A stretch of DNA of 33,575 nucleotides, taken from IMG/VR virus record IMGVR_UViG_3300025697_000084, positions 1 to 33,575 of that record. The stretch is one strand, 5' to 3'. Shown in pieces: positions 10,236 to 30,528 of this stretch. A program made the position numbers and the translations under genes. This DNA is from a virus. The stretch's first letter is position 1, and the number at the start of each line of letters is the position of its first letter. Below the pieces are notes generated by a model. That model did no database searches and was not told the origin of the DNA. It saw nothing but the letters and a program-made list of their open reading frames with translations.

Positions 10236-10608
10236 CTCTCATCACCTTGGTTTCAATGCTTTGCCTCTTAATAAGAATCTCGACATTATACATGTCAAAG
10301 TTAAGATTTGCAAAATCTATCATTTTTCCCATGATTTTTGCCTTAAAAAACCAAAATCCAAGCCTAGAAATGAATATTTTGATGATTAATTTTTTTTCTG
10401 CTTGAATGAAATCAATGTCGACATTCCTAATGTGTTTGTCTAAGTTTATGATGTAAAGTATTGATTTCTTGAGATAATTAGGTGTTAAGACACCGTATTG
10501 GCTCAACCAATCAGACGCAGGGTCTATTTTAGTGGGCCCCATCTCTTCGATGTCAGCGTCCAAATCATCGAGAAGTTTATTGACCTCCATTGCCCTCTTA
10601 GCGTCCAT
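10228..10608 (-). CDS. Unknown phage protein between resolvase and terminase genes
   Basis: I place the start at ATG 10608, which has a perfect SD (AAAAGGAGAGAGT) and overlaps the resolvase gene by 11 nt. A longer frame exists upstream but lies inside the resolvase gene. The product has 126 residues. It has an acidic helix at the N-terminus (KLLDDLDADIEEMG), then SDWLSQYGVLTPNYLKKSIL, and a hydrophobic, positively charged second half (AEKKLIIKIFISRLGFWFFK). The hydrophobic patch is short for a membrane segment. No family is recognised. Its position suggests a packaging or DNA-processing helper. Confidence 0.55.
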   Translation of the reverse strand: MDAKRAMEVNKLLDDLDADIEEMGPTKIDPASDWLSQYGVLTPNYLKKSILYIINLDKHIRNVDIDFIQAEKKLIIKIFISRLGFWFFKAKIMGKMIDFANLNFDMYNVEILIKRQSIETKVMRDE

Positions 10609-11059
10609 ACTCTCTCCTTTTTGCGTAATCCAATAGGCATAGCGCATCGGCCATACCATCATTTTCTTTTCTGCAGCCTTTGGGGATGAGATTAATATCA
10701 GGGAACAACCTCTTGGCAACCATTATGGCGGCCTCCTTGTCTTTGCAAGTCCCCATCAGGACATCTTTCTTCCACGTTTGTGGCAGTATCAAATGGTAGG
10801 GCCATTTTAACGCCTGACACATGCCTATGAGCTGCCCATACCCTTGACCAAAGGTGAACATCGAACAAACCCCCTGGCCAGGTCTAGCCCCAACCTTCTC
10901 GATGTATACAGTCGGTTTGAGACTTTGGAAAAAATCGGCAATAGGTGTTACGTCAATATCCTTGCCCACCAGAGAGAGAGGACTTGCCCCAACTCTTCCT
11001 TCGCGAAGGTACGCCCAGCCACCTTTTTTCCCAGGATCTACTGTCAGAATCACTTCCAT
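10598..11059 (-). CDS. RuvC-like Holliday junction resolvase
   Basis: This 153-residue RNase H-fold nuclease has the RuvC acidic tetrad. The first Asp is in the opening strand (LTVDPGKKGGWA, D8), a Glu is in VYIEKVGARPGQG (about 54), and the last acidic pair is in ENDGMADALCLLDYA near the end. The GFTFGQ-like MFTFGQGYGQLIGM segment is also typical of RuvC. Such enzymes cut four-way DNA junctions symmetrically. Phages use them to debranch replication and recombination intermediates before packaging, which matches its place between SbcC and the terminase genes. The start has TTTAGGAGG upstream. Confidence 0.85.
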   Translation of the reverse strand: MEVILTVDPGKKGGWAYLREGRVGASPLSLVGKDIDVTPIADFFQSLKPTVYIEKVGARPGQGVCSMFTFGQGYGQLIGMCQALKWPYHLILPQTWKKDVLMGTCKDKEAAIMVAKRLFPDINLIPKGCRKENDGMADALCLLDYAKRREYGR

Positions 11060-25281: not shown

Positions 25282-26994
25282 TCAAGTATTTTGAGTCTCT
25301 TCTATTTTCGCGTCGTTATATAGGTCAGGTAAAAGATCTTCTTTCGACAACCCAAGAGCATTTTTGGGAGGTTCGGACGTAATCATGCCGCCACCGACCA
25401 TAAGTTCGCAAGCAATTGAGATCGCGTTTTTCAGCGCATGCTTTGTAACCTTTACTGGATCAATGATTCCGGCAGTGACAGCATCTTTATCGAACACTTT
25501 GTTCCTGACATCGTAAACATATTCACTATTTTTCTGTTTTAAAATTTCATGGATAACGATGTCTGGTTGAATCCCTGCATTCACTAGGATTTGACGGATT
25601 GGTGACTGTAGCGATTGATAGAAAATCTTGCTTACAATTGAATCTTCTTTCCCGTACAATCTGTCGGCAACCCCAAGTAGCGCAGCACCGCCGCCAGCGA
25701 CAACACCGTGTGAAATAGCGGCTCTCGTCGCGTTTAAAGCGTCCTCAACTCGGAACTTTCTTTCTTTCATTTCCAGTTCTGAGTTTCCGCCAACACCAAG
25801 TTCAACGATCCCGCCGACCATCTTTGACATTCTTAATTTTATGATCTCTTTTTCGTACTCTGACTCCGCCCCCTCAAGTGTTGCTTTAAGGGTTTCCATG
25901 TGACCGATCTGTTCTTCTTCTGCGCCACACCCATCATAGATGATGGTGTCATGCCGTTTAATAACGACCTTCTTGCAACTACCTATGATGCCCTCTTTGA
26001 GGGCGCTCTTGGTGCCATCGGTAATCAGAGCTTGTTTTGAAAGCGCATGGGTGCCGTGGTCGACCACACTACCGCCAGTTAAGATCGCAAGATCTTCAAG
26101 GACATAACGACGAGTGTTTACGCCGATCTCCAGGGGGCACTTCACAATACCAATCGTGAACCCTGCTCTTCGGTTGGCGAGGAGTAGATCAAAAGCCTGT
26201 CCTTCGATACCGTAGGAGACAATCAATAGTGGAGTACGCTGCACTCCGTTTGCTGTTAGTGTGATGTAGAAGTTGGCCAGGTCCTGCATGTCTGTGATGA
26301 CGCCATCATAAAGAAGAATGGCTGGTTCCATCAATTCGATGTGACCACCTTGTGGGTGTGTAACGAAAGAAAGTCCATATGGTCCCAAACGATTCCACCC
26401 GGTGCTTAAAGTATACCCTTCAATAAAATCTACGGTGTTCTCTCTCTCATGTCCCTCTTCGATGGCAATGTATCCGGCTTCACCAGCCATATCTATCGCC
26501 TTAACAATTTTATCTGCGATGTCAACGTCACCGTTGGCTGAAATGGAGGCAACATTCAATTGATCTTGTTTATTTTTAATCGGAGTGGAAACTTCATCCA
26601 ATGCTTTAAGTATTCTTTCTTCTTCGGCACGAATATTACGAATTAACTCTTGTGGGGATACTGTGCCAGCAGCAATATACTTCAAACTCTCGTTGATAAA
26701 TTCACGCATCAAAACAATCGCGGTGGTTGTCCCGTCACCGACTTCATCGTTTGTCTTTTGTGAAGCCTCTTTCATCGCTTCAACAATAGTGTTCAATCTA
26801 TTGCTAACGCATATGTTTTTCGCAACAGTAACACCATCTTTTGTAGAAACAGGCGGGAGAGTTTTTCTTTCAAGGAGGATTGGGAGACCTTCTGGTCCAA
26901 GCGTCATTGCGACGGGATCGGCCAAAAGATTTGCTGCTTTTTTAACGAGTGTTCTGAAGTCTTCTTTGCCGATCAGTTCCTTGTATTCTTTCAT
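25282..26994 (-). CDS. groEL: Phage-encoded GroEL chaperonin
   Basis: This 570-residue group I chaperonin retains the ATPase residues: TLGPEG near 31-36, TKDG with D53, GDGTTTA with D87, and D in RVEDALNATRAA matching the catalytic Asp of GroEL. VVAGGGAAL and the late equatorial segments are also present. The C-terminus is a charged tail (LYNDAKIEETQNT) without the usual Gly-Gly-Met repeats, so the central cavity lining differs. No GroES gene is visible in the window. It would fold large phage proteins such as polymerase or virion subunits. Phage chaperonins are known from a few giant phages such as Pseudomonas phage EL. The SD is AAAAGGAG. Confidence 0.95.
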   Translation of the reverse strand: MKEYKELIGKEDFRTLVKKAANLLADPVAMTLGPEGLPILLERKTLPPVSTKDGVTVAKNICVSNRLNTIVEAMKEASQKTNDEVGDGTTTAIVLMREFINESLKYIAAGTVSPQELIRNIRAEEERILKALDEVSTPIKNKQDQLNVASISANGDVDIADKIVKAIDMAGEAGYIAIEEGHERENTVDFIEGYTLSTGWNRLGPYGLSFVTHPQGGHIELMEPAILLYDGVITDMQDLANFYITLTANGVQRTPLLIVSYGIEGQAFDLLLANRRAGFTIGIVKCPLEIGVNTRRYVLEDLAILTGGSVVDHGTHALSKQALITDGTKSALKEGIIGSCKKVVIKRHDTIIYDGCGAEEEQIGHMETLKATLEGAESEYEKEIIKLRMSKMVGGIVELGVGGNSELEMKERKFRVEDALNATRAAISHGVVAGGGAALLGVADRLYGKEDSIVSKIFYQSLQSPIRQILVNAGIQPDIVIHEILKQKNSEYVYDVRNKVFDKDAVTAGIIDPVKVTKHALKNAISIACELMVGGGMITSEPPKNALGLSKEDLLPDLYNDAKIEETQNT

Positions 26995-27007
26995 TTTTTT
27001 TCTCCTT

Positions 27008-27229
27008 TTAATCGTTGATTATCACTTTGGCTTTATAAAGTTGTTCTATTTTTTTTATTTCTTCTTCTGTCATATCTTTTAGTGTCCTGCATGGCCCACT
27101 ACTTGTGAGTTTCGCCATTTCGTCGCAAATAAACGCAGAGTATCCATCTCTTAAGACCTGGGCGCTGCTGTAATGCATATACTCGTCATCAATTTGAGGG
27201 TCCTTTAAAAATTCTTCATAATTCAGCAT
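27008..27229 (-). CDS. Small unknown protein leading the GroEL operon
   Basis: This 73-residue protein has an acidic start (MLNYEEFLKDPQIDDEYMHY), a Ser/Thr-rich middle with two Cys, and a C-terminal helix (DMTEEEIKKIEQLYKAKVII). No family is recognised. It is the first gene of the leftward run behind the divergent promoter and ends 13 nt before GroEL. It is far shorter than GroES (about 97 residues) and lacks a mobile-loop pattern, so I do not call it a co-chaperonin. Its SD is weak (GAGAAA). Confidence 0.5.
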   Translation of the reverse strand: MLNYEEFLKDPQIDDEYMHYSSAQVLRDGYSAFICDEMAKLTSSGPCRTLKDMTEEEIKKIEQLYKAKVIIND

Positions 27230-27257
27230 AATTTCTCGTTATCAATACAGTCTATTT

Positions 27258-27286
27258 TGTATACGCCAATCTATTCAAAAAGCCAA
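27258..27286 (-). promoter_or_regulatory. Leftward sigma70-type promoter (GroEL operon)
   Basis: On the minus strand TTGGCT (27286-27281) and TATACA (27263-27258) are 17 nt apart. It lies upstream of the first leftward gene in the divergent region. It shares the TTGG...GTATAC layout with the promoter at 25246-25274. The -35 box overlaps the left arm of the palindrome at 27284-27315. Confidence 0.5.
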
Positions 27287-27315
27287 AAACTATTTTTTTT
27301 AGAAAAAAGTTTTTG
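27284..27315. repeat. Palindrome between divergent promoters
   Basis: CAAAAACT (27284-27291) is repeated in inverted form as AGTTTTTG (27308-27315). A T-run and an A-run in between can extend the stem. The arms overlap the -35 regions of both divergent promoters, so it could be an operator, a cruciform, or a structure that insulates the two transcripts. Confidence 0.5.
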
Positions 27316-27342
27316 ACTTGGATCTTTCACGTGCTGTATAGA
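27313..27342 (+). promoter_or_regulatory. Rightward sigma70-type promoter
   Basis: TTGACT (27313-27318) is followed after 18 nt by TATAGA (27337-27342). The expected start of transcription is near 27349. That is downstream of the first ATG (27345) of the next gene and only about 5 nt before its second ATG (27354), implying a leaderless or nearly leaderless message. Confidence 0.5.
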
Positions 27343-27353
27343 AGATGAACTCA

Positions 27354-28520
27354 ATGCCGACTCCTTTAATTACAAACCAACCGAAGGAACGATTTTTTAC
27401 TATCAAGATAGGTCTGCCTGTCAACACTTCTAGCACAACCAACGGTCTCACACAAAAAAAATTAGACATGATAAATCTGTGGTTCCAAGAAGCCACAGAG
27501 ATAACGAATCTCCATCTCGACCTCATCAAAGAAACTCAGAGGACAGATAACGGGTTCCACCATTCAATGCTGTACAACAAGATCCGCAAAAGTTGCAAGA
27601 ACACTCCGTCCTCTTCCTTAAAGCACTTCAAAGAAAATGCAGTAAAAATTGCTCTAAATGAAAAAAAGATAGTTGATGAAAATGGTCATGTCACAATATC
27701 CCCTGTCTTCATAGATAAGAACAATTTCAGATTCAGCCTTCCCAAAACCGACACATCAAACTTCGACTTCTTCATTGAAATCAAAAACGAAAATTTTGTG
27801 GTTCCCTGCTATAGTAAGGAAACCGCCTTAAAATTGAGAAAGATCGGCCTTATGGCTGATGATGCCAAAGCAGAGAAAGAGACCGCAAAAGAGCTTGAAA
27901 TTGAAGGTCTATTAAATGAAAAAAAGATACACAAAAACAAATACAATTCTAAGGGGTATAGAGTCATCCGAGGGATGTTCATCCGCAGACACAAAAAACT
28001 CTTCTTTTACCTCACGTTAGCCCAAAAAATAAATCCAAAAAAAGACTATAGTTCGCATATCATCGGGAGTAGGAAGGTGGAGATTATTGATCGTTTTGAC
28101 AAAAACGTCAATAATCCTATGGCCTTAAGTGCCCCACCTCCTCCACTGAAACCCTCAAAAACCGTGTTTTATGCGGTTGAGGTGAAACCTCGTTTTAGGG
28201 GTAAAGAGAATCCGGCTCCGGCCACGATCCTCTCTATTCCGAAATGGGCTAATTCTGATGATGTACCGATTCCTCACAAGAGAAAAGAACGTCCAGGGCT
28301 CAAAGAAGAGTTAAGGGTATCAGGCTTTCGTCGCTGGGGGACTTCCCCTTATAGTGACGGCTTAGGCATTGTAGATGAGTTTCTTGCTCCTACCCCTTAC
28401 AGAGAGTGGCTCCTTGACCCCCAGAATAGCTACGAGAACTTACGGCGATACAACGCCGAGCACGTAGCTCCTAAAGGGTTGGAACCAATTTCCCTGACAA
28501 AAGTTCTTTACGTCGTATAA
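27354..28520 (+). CDS. Unrecognised protein; N-terminal half resembles TnpB/Cas12 RNA-binding domains, no RuvC
   Basis: This product has about 388 residues (an ATG at 27345 would add three). Residues 15-235 follow the order of a TnpB/Cas12 N-terminal half: a first strand (FFTIKIGLPV), a helical bundle (LDMINLWFQEATEITNLHLD), a beta part with PVFIDKNNFRFSLPK, and a last strand pair (YRVIRGMFIRRHKKLFFYLT) like the WED domain. Where RuvC-I (DxG) should begin there is only a Pro-rich stretch (ALSAPPPPLKPSK). No RuvC acidic residues or zinc finger follow. The last 145 codons are GC-richer and full of strong inverted repeats, suggesting an RNA overlaps the gene. If related to TnpB it would be nuclease-dead. 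The similarity is by eye, so treat it as a hypothesis. It may be an unrelated phage protein. Confidence 0.4.
   Translation: MPTPLITNQPKERFFTIKIGLPVNTSSTTNGLTQKKLDMINLWFQEATEITNLHLDLIKETQRTDNGFHHSMLYNKIRKSCKNTPSSSLKHFKENAVKIALNEKKIVDENGHVTISPVFIDKNNFRFSLPKTDTSNFDFFIEIKNENFVVPCYSKETALKLRKIGLMADDAKAEKETAKELEIEGLLNEKKIHKNKYNSKGYRVIRGMFIRRHKKLFFYLTLAQKINPKKDYSSHIIGSRKVEIIDRFDKNVNNPMALSAPPPPLKPSKTVFYAVEVKPRFRGKENPAPATILSIPKWANSDDVPIPHKRKERPGLKEELRVSGFRRWGTSPYSDGLGIVDEFLAPTPYREWLLDPQNSYENLRRYNAEHVAPKGLEPISLTKVLYVV
28082..28470 (+). ncRNA. Candidate structured RNA overlapping the 3' third of the preceding gene
   Basis: Several strong stems lie close together. First, GATTATTGA (28082-28090) pairs with TCAATAATC (28108-28116), and inside it CGTTTT pairs with AAAACG, making 15 bp with one bulged T. 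Second, AACCG (28160-28164) pairs with CGGTT (28174-28178), or GAGGT (28179-28183) with ACCTC (28187-28191). Third, CGTCGCT (28329-28335) pairs with AGTGACG (28353-28359, one G-U), with GGGG/CCCC inside. Fourth, AGCTACG (28428-28434) pairs with CGTAGCT (28463-28469), with CGGCG/CGCCG inside. CTGGGGG (28334-28340) can also pair with CCCCCAG (28418-28424). Such density is not expected of plain coding sequence. The RNA class is unknown. Confidence 0.35.
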
Positions 28521-28561
28521 TTCACTCTTTTGGGGACTAAAAAAAGGGATCTTTTTACTCA

Positions 28562-28587
28562 TTTATTGGGAGCAATTTTCCAATAAA
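28562..28587 (+). repeat. 8-bp hairpin with 10-nt loop
   Basis: TTTATTGG (28562-28569) pairs perfectly with CCAATAAA (28580-28587). There is no T-run after it, so it is not a classical terminator. It may belong to the structured RNA region. Confidence 0.5.
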
Positions 28588-28685
28588 AGAAACCCGTCTA
28601 TCTGTAGTATGTAGTTAATAGTTAGAGACATGAGAGACATAAGAAAAAAAGATAGATCGAGTTTTTAGGTATCTTTTAATGAGAT

Positions 28686-28711
28686 TTTAATCGGGTTTTA
28701 ACCCGATTAAA
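28686..28711. terminator. Terminator-like 11-bp hairpin
   Basis: TTTAATCGGGT (28686-28696) pairs perfectly with ACCCGATTAAA (28701-28711) around a 4-nt loop. The flanks are A/T rich on both sides, though a clean T-run is missing. It could end the transcript of the 27354 gene, work in either direction, or resemble the subterminal hairpin of an IS200/IS605-type element. Confidence 0.45.
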
Positions 28712-28738
28712 TAATAAGGTTTATAACGCTAGAGTTGT

Positions 28739-28754
28739 ATTTGATAAATCAAAT
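28739..28754. repeat. 7-bp inverted repeat, operator-like
   Basis: ATTTGAT and ATCAAAT are separated by AA (28739-28754). The 16-bp symmetric site has the size of a repressor or regulator operator. It lies about 90 nt before the HNH gene. Confidence 0.35.
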
Positions 28755-28812
28755 CTAATGGGAACCGCTTTTGAAAACCGTTTTTTCGGGATACCCCTCC
28801 GAAAAAAATTGA

Positions 28813-28840
28813 TTTCACAGACAGGTGTGTTACTGTGAAA
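28813..28840 (+). promoter_or_regulatory. Hairpin abutting the HNH start codon
   Basis: TTTCACAG (28813-28820) pairs perfectly with CTGTGAAA (28833-28840) around a 12-nt loop, ending 2 nt before the ATG at 28843. The only SD-like sequence (AGGTG) is inside the loop. This could be an RNA switch that controls translation, or an operator. Confidence 0.45.
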
Positions 28841-28842
28841 CA

Positions 28843-29151
28843 ATGAAGTTATGCTCGATATGTAAGAGTAATTTTCAGCCAAAGCATTCAAGGTACTGCA
28901 ACATGTGTCACGCTGCCTATATGCGTGAATGGCGGAAGACGCATCCATTGTCAGAGGAACAGAAAAGGAAAATGAATTGTAGGGCCTACGCCAATGTCTA
29001 TCTGAAAAGGGGGAAAATACAAAAGAAACCTTGCGCAAAATGTGGCTCATTGGACGCTCAGATGCATCACTCTGATTATTCAAAGCCACTGGAGGCCAGG
29101 TGGCTGTGCGTTAAATGCAATCGGGCAGAACACAGAAAGGGTTTTACGTGA
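28843..29151 (+). CDS. Small HNH endonuclease
   Basis: This 102-residue protein starts at ATG 28843; a GTG at 28825 lies inside the leader hairpin and is less likely. Two Cys pairs near the start (CSICKS, CNMC) form a zinc knuckle. A linker of the common phage type (YMREWRKTHPLSEEQKRK ... YANVYLKRGK) follows. The C-terminal HNH part has CAKCG, the catalytic HH in QMHHSDY, and LCVKCNRAEH. The active histidines look intact, unlike the protein at 2059-3186. Such free-standing HNH proteins occur as homing-type nucleases or, near terminases, as packaging helpers. Here the neighbour is a helicase. No ordinary SD is present. Confidence 0.75.
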   Translation: MKLCSICKSNFQPKHSRYCNMCHAAYMREWRKTHPLSEEQKRKMNCRAYANVYLKRGKIQKKPCAKCGSLDAQMHHSDYSKPLEARWLCVKCNRAEHRKGFT

Positions 29152-29157
29152 AACACT

Positions 29158-30528
29158 ATGATTAAACTACTAATAAATAACACGATAACTAAAATTGAAG
29201 GTGAAAACAGCCAGTTGGTGGCGATAGGGAATCAGCTCTATAAGCTTCTGTCGTATGAGAAGCCTGGGGCAAGATTTTCAAGGGCACCAGAGTGGCTGAA
29301 ATACGTGAGGCTCTATAGTAAAATAGACCATACCTTCCCGACAGGACTGATCCAAAAGGTCGTGGATTTTCTGAAATTGAACGGCCAGGAATTCGAGCTT
29401 ATTGATCTTAGGGCCCCTCAAGAAGATGAAAAGAGTTTCTATTTTAATAGGCTTAAAAAATCGCTGCCTTTGAGACCATATCAGGAAGAGGCGATGGCGG
29501 CTCTCGCCAAACATCCGAGGGGTGTTATTGAGGCCGCAACTGGAACAGGCAAGAGTTTATTGATCGAGGAGTTGATTCATAGAAAGGGTCTTAGGACACT
29601 TCTTATCACTCCTTCCTCGAATATCCTTAATATTTTTGAGGAGAAGCTTATAGCCATGTTTGGCAGGAGATACGTTGGTCTTATCACAGGGAACAAAAAA
29701 AATCTCGACAAACCCATTACTATCTCGACATACCAATCCCTGCCCAAGATCCCGAAGGAGTGGTTTGGAAATCTCCAAATGATTATCACGGATGAAGCCC
29801 ATCATAGTGCCGCCAATACTCTTTATGATTTGAATATAAATTGCTTTAAGAATGTATACTACAGGTATGGTTTTAGTGCGACTTTTTTCCGGAATGACTC
29901 TTCTCAGCTGTCCCTGCAGGGCGTCCTTTCTGATGTGATTTATGAGTACAAATATAAGCAGGCAATAAAGGATGGTTACCTCTGTCCGGTGAGATTTGTG
30001 GTTTTCGACAACAACAATGAGAACTATGATGAGAATTGGAGAACAGAGATTCGGAATGGTTTAACATTAAATGATGAATTCAATGAGAAGATTGGGGCTC
30101 TTGCGAGGGGCTTTGATAAGAGGTCTATTCCTACGCTTATTTTTGTAAACGAAATTGAGCACGGGAACCGCATCCAAGCACTTATCCCAGGATCCAGGTT
30201 TATAAGCGGCAAGGAGTTGAGGGCTGACAATAAAAGAGACCTGGCTGATTTCAATAATAGGAAATTCAATATTTTGATTGGGACTTCGGTAATTGGTGAG
30301 GGCGTGGATACCGTCCCTGCCCAGGTGGGGATTCTTGCCAGTGGATTCAAGGCTGAGTCAGAAGTAGTTCAGAAGATAGGCCGCTTATTAAGGATGTCCC
30401 CAGGAAAGACCCATTCGACTTTTATCGATTTCATGAACATAGGTTGCAAATATTTGAGCCGACATTGCAAAAAAAGGATCCAGATTTATAAGAGTTACGG
30501 TGATGATATAACTCATAAATTACTATAA
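29158..30528 (+). CDS. UvsW-like DEAH helicase
   Basis: This 456-residue superfamily 2 helicase has an N-terminal domain of about 100 residues (MIKLLINNTITKIEGENSQL onward) that resembles the UvsW substrate-binding domain. The motor follows: Q-like LRPYQEEAM, motif I ATGTGKS (127-133), motif II TDEAHH near 212, motif III GFSATFF near 240, motif V SVIGEGVD and motif VI QKIGRLLR. UvsW unwinds R-loops and branched DNA and moves Holliday junctions, switching T4 from origin to recombination replication. It would work with UvsX, SSB and SbcCD on the other strand. It starts 6 nt after the HNH stop with no clear SD. Confidence 0.85.
   Translation: MIKLLINNTITKIEGENSQLVAIGNQLYKLLSYEKPGARFSRAPEWLKYVRLYSKIDHTFPTGLIQKVVDFLKLNGQEFELIDLRAPQEDEKSFYFNRLKKSLPLRPYQEEAMAALAKHPRGVIEAATGTGKSLLIEELIHRKGLRTLLITPSSNILNIFEEKLIAMFGRRYVGLITGNKKNLDKPITISTYQSLPKIPKEWFGNLQMIITDEAHHSAANTLYDLNINCFKNVYYRYGFSATFFRNDSSQLSLQGVLSDVIYEYKYKQAIKDGYLCPVRFVVFDNNNENYDENWRTEIRNGLTLNDEFNEKIGALARGFDKRSIPTLIFVNEIEHGNRIQALIPGSRFISGKELRADNKRDLADFNNRKFNILIGTSVIGEGVDTVPAQVGILASGFKAESEVVQKIGRLLRMSPGKTHSTFIDFMNIGCKYLSRHCKKRIQIYKSYGDDITHKLL

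What the first reader, a model, noticed from the sequence alone, without database searches (positions are those of the whole stretch)
27284..28520. TnpB/Cas12-like RNA-binding half without RuvC, in a phage, next to structured RNA
Seen: a 388-residue protein whose first 235 residues follow the domain order of TnpB/Cas12 N-terminal halves and end in a WED-like strand pair, yet no RuvC acidic motif or zinc finger follows. The frame then enters GC-richer sequence (sample lines counted by hand: about 52% GC at 28381-28440 against 32% at 27661-27720) full of stems. In TnpB loci the guide RNA overlaps the 3' end of the gene. Nuclease-dead TnpB relatives (TldRs) act as RNA-guided repressors, some encoded in prophages. 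Inferred: this could be a more reduced, guide-RNA-carrying regulator. The similarity is by eye only.
Basis: partly seen in the sequence, partly recalled or inferred. Interest (0 to 1): 0.72.

Follow-up and report, generated by a model that had tools for sequence, protein, structure and literature searches.

The report
Phage TnpB-like protein lacking its nuclease
An uncharacterised phage family appears to carry a protein built like the nucleic-acid-gripping half of the TnpB/Cas12f gene-cutting enzymes but with the cutting half missing, which, if confirmed, would be a new way these enzymes have been reused.

Summary
The ORF is real: 27345-28520 (+), 391 aa, or 388 aa from the second ATG. No database search found a relative. 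Following the phage's DNA polymerase led to a related phage, seen on two contigs, with a syntenic homologue (317 aa) between groEL and a UvsW-like helicase. Only the first ~235 residues are homologous (28-31% identity; global z 18.6 against shuffles). The tails after a proline-rich linker are not detectably related. Neither protein has room for RuvC plus a zinc finger, and neither has a CxxC. An AlphaFold2 model of the homologue's N-half (2-sequence alignment, low confidence, pLDDT 46) gave Cas12f/TnpB as Foldseek PDB ranks 1-11 (best E 3.7e-3, none below 1e-3). Alignments stop just before RuvC. The window protein's own model (pLDDT 33) was uninformative, and sequence profiles gave only weak collinear support. 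The guide-RNA idea is not: the GC rise is in codon positions 1 and 2, only one hairpin inside the gene stands out, and the downstream regions share no sequence, Rfam match or consistent folding signal. Best reading: a RuvC-less REC-lobe (WED+REC) descendant used as a non-cutting nucleic-acid-binding protein. Regulator versus counter-defence decoy is unresolved.

The parts
27345..28520 (+). Gene X: 391-aa orphan protein P0001 (alternative start ATG 27354 gives 388 aa)
   Evidence: ORF and codon statistics; syntenic homologue in two contigs
27345..28049 (+). N-half, residues 1-235: conserved module with predicted TnpB/Cas12f WED-REC-WED-like order (strand ~16-24, helices ~37-63, 69-83, 89-105, strand pair ~205-229)
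   Evidence: Homology z 18.6; homologue model and fold searches; weak collinear hhalign match
28050..28520 (+). C-tail, residues 236-391: proline-rich linker (APPPPLKP) then sequence not detectably conserved in the homologue; no cysteine, no Pfam match
27280..27319 (.). Palindrome at the promoter of X (17-nt arms, 88% complementary, 6-nt loop); counterpart with 25-nt arms upstream of the homologue (L011 8111-8170). Possible operator (inference)
27313..27342 (+). Sigma70-like promoter TTGACT-18-TATAGA whose second hexamer ends 2 nt before the ATG at 27345
   Evidence: read from sequence by eye, not listed by the consensus scan
28082..28116 (+). Hairpin inside the coding sequence at the junction of N-half and tail (17-nt arms, 82%, 1-nt loop)
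28494..28521 (+). Promoter-like CTGACA-16-TATAAT (11 of 12) overlapping the stop codon of X
28521..28839 (+). Downstream intergenic region with hairpins (28686-28711; terminator-like 28781-28807); candidate leader or small RNA, not conserved in sequence
28840..29151 (+). Neighbour: small HNH/zinc endonuclease-like gene, absent between X and helicase in the relative
29158..30528 (+). Neighbour: UvsW-like helicase, conserved in position
25282..26994 (-). Neighbour: phage GroEL, first large gene of the divergent operon, conserved in position

Best explanation
Gene X encodes a RuvC-less relative of the TnpB/Cas12f superfamily: a REC lobe (WED beta-barrel with an inserted helical REC domain) followed by a proline-rich linker and a fast-changing tail. 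It cannot cut DNA as TnpB does; it most likely binds nucleic acid. In ISDra2 TnpB the WED-REC cleft holds the TAM DNA duplex, while the guide-RNA scaffold needs WED plus RuvC (PMC10097598), so the surviving half would be expected to keep duplex-DNA binding better than guide-RNA binding. I therefore favour a sequence-specific DNA-binding regulator of the divergent promoter region where it lies, perhaps acting on the palindrome at its own promoter. Shown: the gene, the syntenic homologue, conservation ending at the linker, absence of a zinc finger and of room for RuvC. Predicted from a low-confidence model: the fold. Inferred: DNA binding, regulation, the operator.
For: Homologue of the N-half in the same place (groEL - X - helicase, same orientations) in a related phage. 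In the homologue's model, Foldseek PDB ranks 1-9 are AsCas12f chains, 10 is RhCas12f and 11 is ISFba1 TnpB (best E 3.7e-3); in the viral library most of the leading named hits are IS605-type transposases. VIA-align covers 124-151 of 212 residues on many Cas12f/TnpB/Fanzor/Cas12k chains, ending at residue ~173-181 of TnpB, next to the published RuvC start at 185; published WED 1-12 and REC 13-116 (PMC10097598) match the model's strand 2-12 and helices from 16. hhalign against TnpB N-halves is collinear: residues 15-99 on 13-95; in a second set 65 columns, a length reached by 0 of 300 column shuffles. Conservation stops at the linker. Palindrome at the X promoter in both genomes.
Against: The model has pLDDT 46 and pTM 0.38 from two sequences, and no Foldseek hit reaches E 1e-3. 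VIA Z of 6-7.6 lies in the range the tool calls common for models without a clear match, and unrelated helical chains (PNPase) score equally over ~60 residues. The window protein's own single-sequence model gave no Cas12/TnpB match. hhalign scores are weak: 5 of 200 and 30 of 300 shuffles reach them, and one control protein scored 17.6 against 17.1. No Pfam, NCBIfam, PHROG or PADLOC match. No binding or regulation was tested. The homologue is one distinct sequence.
Confidence: 0.5

Rival explanations
1. Counter-defence decoy: a phage-kept fragment of a Cas12f/TnpB-like effector that poisons the host's own Cas12f, TnpB or relative by occupying its partner surface or its guide RNA.
For: X diverges faster (28-31% identity) than neighbouring core genes (groEL 48%, helicase 53%, polymerase 53%, DnaB 42%, primase 47%), as arms-race genes often do. 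Cas12f works as a dimer (PMC10097598). Phage inhibitors that are homologues or fragments of Cas subunits exist (AcrIB3, AcrIB4; PMC13131331).
Against: No host is known and no link to a host TnpB or Cas12f locus was found. Fast divergence also fits weak constraint. A conserved core location is less usual for an inhibitor (inference).
Confidence: 0.2
2. RNA-guided repressor like TldR but more reduced, using an RNA from the 3' end of X or the region after it.
For: A promoter-like site overlaps the X stop codon and a terminator-like hairpin lies ~290 nt on; the 319-nt region folds somewhat better than shuffles (z -1.97).
Against: In TnpB much of the guide RNA scaffold is held by RuvC and the heteroduplex channel is REC plus RuvC (PMC10097598); RuvC is missing here. 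The homologue's region does not fold better than shuffles (z +0.25) and shares no sequence. No Rfam match. No guide-like self-match beyond chance. TldRs keep an inactivated RuvC (PMC13418256).
Confidence: 0.07
3. Unrelated phage protein with a generic strand-helices-strands layout; the TnpB/Cas12f resemblance is an artefact of a poor model.
For: Low pLDDT, E above 1e-3, Z in the noise range, no sequence-profile match, uninformative own model.
Against: The first eleven PDB hits all belong to one superfamily and the viral library independently favours the same one. Matches are in domain order over most of the module and stop where RuvC begins. A worse model of P0001 did not give these hits, so poor models do not give them by default.
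Confidence: 0.3

Closest known systems
Cas12f (AsCas12f, PDB 8j3r, 8dzj) and TnpB (ISDra2 8bf8/8exa/8h1j, ISFba1 8iaz), REC lobe
   Same: Predicted order and extent: first strand, helical insert, strands, ending where RuvC would begin
   Different: No RuvC, no TNB zinc finger, no detectable sequence-family match, no demonstrated guide RNA
TldR (TnpB-like nuclease-dead repressors), some prophage-encoded (PMC13418256)
   Same: A phage gene proposed as a non-cutting TnpB derivative
   Different: TldRs lose activity by mutating RuvC and keep the domain and a gRNA; here the domain is absent and no gRNA is supported
Cas-homologous anti-CRISPRs AcrIB3 and AcrIB4 (PMC13131331)
   Same: Phage proteins that are homologues or fragments of effector subunits
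   Different: Those are type I-B subunits with 38% or otherwise recognisable identity; no inhibition is shown here
Cas12m2 and other natural non-cleaving Cas12 (PMC10442227)
   Same: Binding without cutting as a working mode in this superfamily
   Different: Cas12m2 keeps RuvC and is a CRISPR effector

Membership tests
TnpB | WED + REC N-terminal half | tested here: inconclusive
   Homologue model matches in order and extent but at low confidence; P0001 model uninformative; hhalign weak
TnpB | RuvC domain with D-E-D triad | tested here: not met
   No Pfam/NCBIfam match; only 156 and 106 residues follow the N-half, against ~190 for RuvC+TNB in ISDra2 (185-375); no open frame after 28050 in the other two + frames. 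Not tested by a fold model of the tail
TnpB | CxxC...CxxC zinc finger (TNB) | tested here: not met
   Cysteines at 84 and 155 only in P0001; 59, 255 and 294 in the homologue; no PF07282 match in the record or its relatives
TnpB | omegaRNA overlapping the 3' end of the gene | tested here: inconclusive
   No Rfam match, no shared sequence, unequal folding signal; two diverged loci cannot exclude an RNA
IS200/IS605 element | Mobile element with TnpA and hairpin ends | tested here: inconclusive
   X sits in the same place in a diverged relative, which speaks against a recent insertion; TnpA was not searched specifically
Cas12f (type V-F CRISPR) | CRISPR array nearby | tested here: not met
   No regularly spaced direct repeats at 26900-29200
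TldR | Catalytically dead RuvC retained | tested here: not met
   No RuvC domain found (rows above)
TldR | gRNA matching a target promoter | tested here: inconclusive
   No self-match beyond chance within 33 kb; host genome unknown
Cas-homologous anti-CRISPR | Inhibits a CRISPR or TnpB effector | not testable with these tools
   Needs an interference assay

The most novel reading that the evidence does not exclude
A guide-RNA-using regulator or inhibitor built from only the WED and REC domains, with the RNA transcribed from about 28528 to 28810: an RNA-guided protein of the Cas12 lineage that works with no RuvC domain at all.
Probability: 0.06. Interest if true: 0.85.

Novelty: new variant of a known kind. 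Interest (0 to 1): 0.52.

Why it matters
Known non-cutting TnpB and Cas12 relatives (TldR, Cas12m, Cas12k) keep the RuvC fold. My literature searches found no RuvC-less one (a limited open-access library). If the fold is confirmed, the two halves of these enzymes can be separated in nature, and this protein would show what the REC lobe does alone: bind a short DNA motif, hold an RNA, or block a full-length relative.

Tried and rejected
Direct relatives of P0001: none in phages, plasmids, IMG/VR or GTDB contigs. Profile of the pair in ~790 Bacteroidota and Bacillota genomes: nothing, but the tool warns that an empty answer shows little. A conserved-motif DNA pattern (FHHx[MI]LYxK) in viral and genome contigs returned only the two known loci as clear relatives; weaker ones such as L046 (E 0.0012) contain the pattern by construction. 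PDB sequence searches: nothing. Fold searches with the single-sequence P0001 model: no Cas12/TnpB in the list and no Z above 3.1; at pLDDT 33 this is uninformative. C-tail homology between the two proteins: not significant (264 of 2000 local, 803 of 2000 global). 'IIDRFDKNVNN' (247-257) as a leftover RuvC-I motif: considered and dropped, as the aspartate is not kept in the homologue. Frameshifted RuvC: the other + frames are closed. I read the TTGACT/TATAGA promoter by eye; the consensus scan did not list it.

Full report
What the window is. The 33,575-base record is a fragment of a tailed phage (portal, terminase, DnaE-like polymerase, primase, DnaB helicase, SbcCD, UvsX-like recombinase, RuvC-type resolvase, GroEL). 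Its polymerase is at best ~32% identical (~34% over partial matches) to phages in public records, so the clade is poorly sampled.

The gene. Codon usage fits the frame in both halves. The GC step is therefore amino-acid composition, not a sign of an RNA gene.

Finding a relative. No family library, phage, plasmid or contig search found a relative of the protein itself. Going through the phage's polymerase gave two long contigs (109 and 89 kb) from a related phage, and these hold a homologue. The homologue reads the same in both contigs, so there are two distinct sequences in all. It lies between groEL and the UvsW-like helicase in the same orientations. The N-halves are homologous (28-31% identity, z 18.6, 0 of 2000 shuffles). 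The tails are not detectably so. The border is a proline-rich linker in both (APPPPLKP; SPPPVNPS). X diverges faster than its neighbours (48-53% for groEL, helicase and polymerase; 42% DnaB, 47% primase).

The fold. A single-sequence model of P0001 failed (pLDDT 33) and its fold searches gave nothing useful. The homologue's N-half with P0001 as second row gave pLDDT 46, pTM 0.38, with residues 1-80 and 180-207 mostly at 50-66: strand 2-12, helices 16-42, 48-62 and 68-84, then a strand pair 180-191 and 196-207. Foldseek against the PDB put Cas12f or TnpB at ranks 1-11 (E 3.7e-3 to 0.4), with non-members from rank 12 on and further TnpB/Cas12n chains among them. The viral library's leading named hits are mostly IS605-type transposases. 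VIA-align aligned 124-151 residues to many members of the superfamily at Z up to 7.6; the TnpB ranges end near residue 173-181. Published ISDra2 boundaries are WED 1-12 and 117-176, REC 13-116, RuvC from 185 (PMC10097598). Caution: no E-value is below 1e-3; Z of 6-7.6 is not by itself above the tool's noise range, and short helical matches to unrelated proteins score as well. I could run no further structure jobs, so there is no control set of models; the failed P0001 model is the only hint that poor models do not give these hits by default.

Sequence support. hhalign of the pair against 14 TnpB N-halves aligned residues 15-99 with 13-95 (score 17.1; 5 of 200 column shuffles reach it; the best of 21 control proteins scored 17.6 but over 26 columns). 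A second set of 17 TnpBs gave a lower score (15.4; 30 of 300 shuffles reach it) but 65 aligned columns, a length no shuffle reached. I chose to look at alignment length as well as score after seeing the first result, so it is a post-hoc measure, and shuffling also destroys helix periodicity. I count this as weak support.

No nuclease. P0001 has 156 residues and the homologue 106 after the module, against about 190 in ISDra2 TnpB for RuvC plus TNB. There is no CxxC in either, no Pfam match in the tail, and no open frame downstream in the other + frames. The tails were not modelled alone.

The RNA idea. The downstream intergenic regions have similar length (319 and 328 nt) but no shared sequence, and fold with z -1.97 and +0.25. 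Rfam is empty at curated thresholds and chance-level below. One hairpin in the gene (28082-28116) and one after it (28686-28711) stand out. A promoter-like site overlaps the stop codon, so a transcript from this region is possible, but nothing ties it to X.

Mechanism. If the fold is right, X keeps the parts that grip the TAM duplex (WED, REC) and lacks the RuvC surface that shares in holding the RNA scaffold and heteroduplex (PMC10097598). With a conserved palindrome at its own promoter in both genomes and a place at a divergent promoter region, a DNA-binding regulator is my first choice; a decoy against host Cas12f/TnpB is second (precedent AcrIB3/AcrIB4, PMC13131331). Both are inferences. 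Confidence that the N-half belongs to the TnpB/Cas12f fold group: about 0.65. Confidence in the regulator role given that: about 0.4. The figure of 0.5 in the form is for the RuvC-less, non-cutting, nucleic-acid-binding reading as a whole; the decoy rival shares that fold reading and differs only in the role.

Noticed in passing
27280-27319; L011 8111-8170 and 6838: AT-rich palindrome with a shared core (AAAAACTATTTT...AGTTTTT(G/T)ACTT) at the X promoter in both genomes; a half-site also precedes the helicase in the relative.
   Followed up: partly
27337-27345; L011 8079-8100: In both genomes a -10-like box lies just before the X start codon and no clear Shine-Dalgarno is seen, hinting at a leaderless mRNA or a later start.
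   Followed up: no
28494-28521; L011 7120-7130: TATAAT overlaps the stop codon of X in both genomes; in the window it forms an 11-of-12 promoter match.
   Followed up: partly
28840-29151: Small HNH/zinc endonuclease-like gene between X and the helicase in the window but not in the relative; probably a mobile free-standing HNH.
   Followed up: partly
25282-26994: The phage encodes its own GroEL, 48% identical in the related phage.
   Followed up: partly
10601-11059 (-); L002 11670-12119: A free-standing RuvC-type Holliday junction resolvase in this phage clade; no evidence links it to X.
   Followed up: partly
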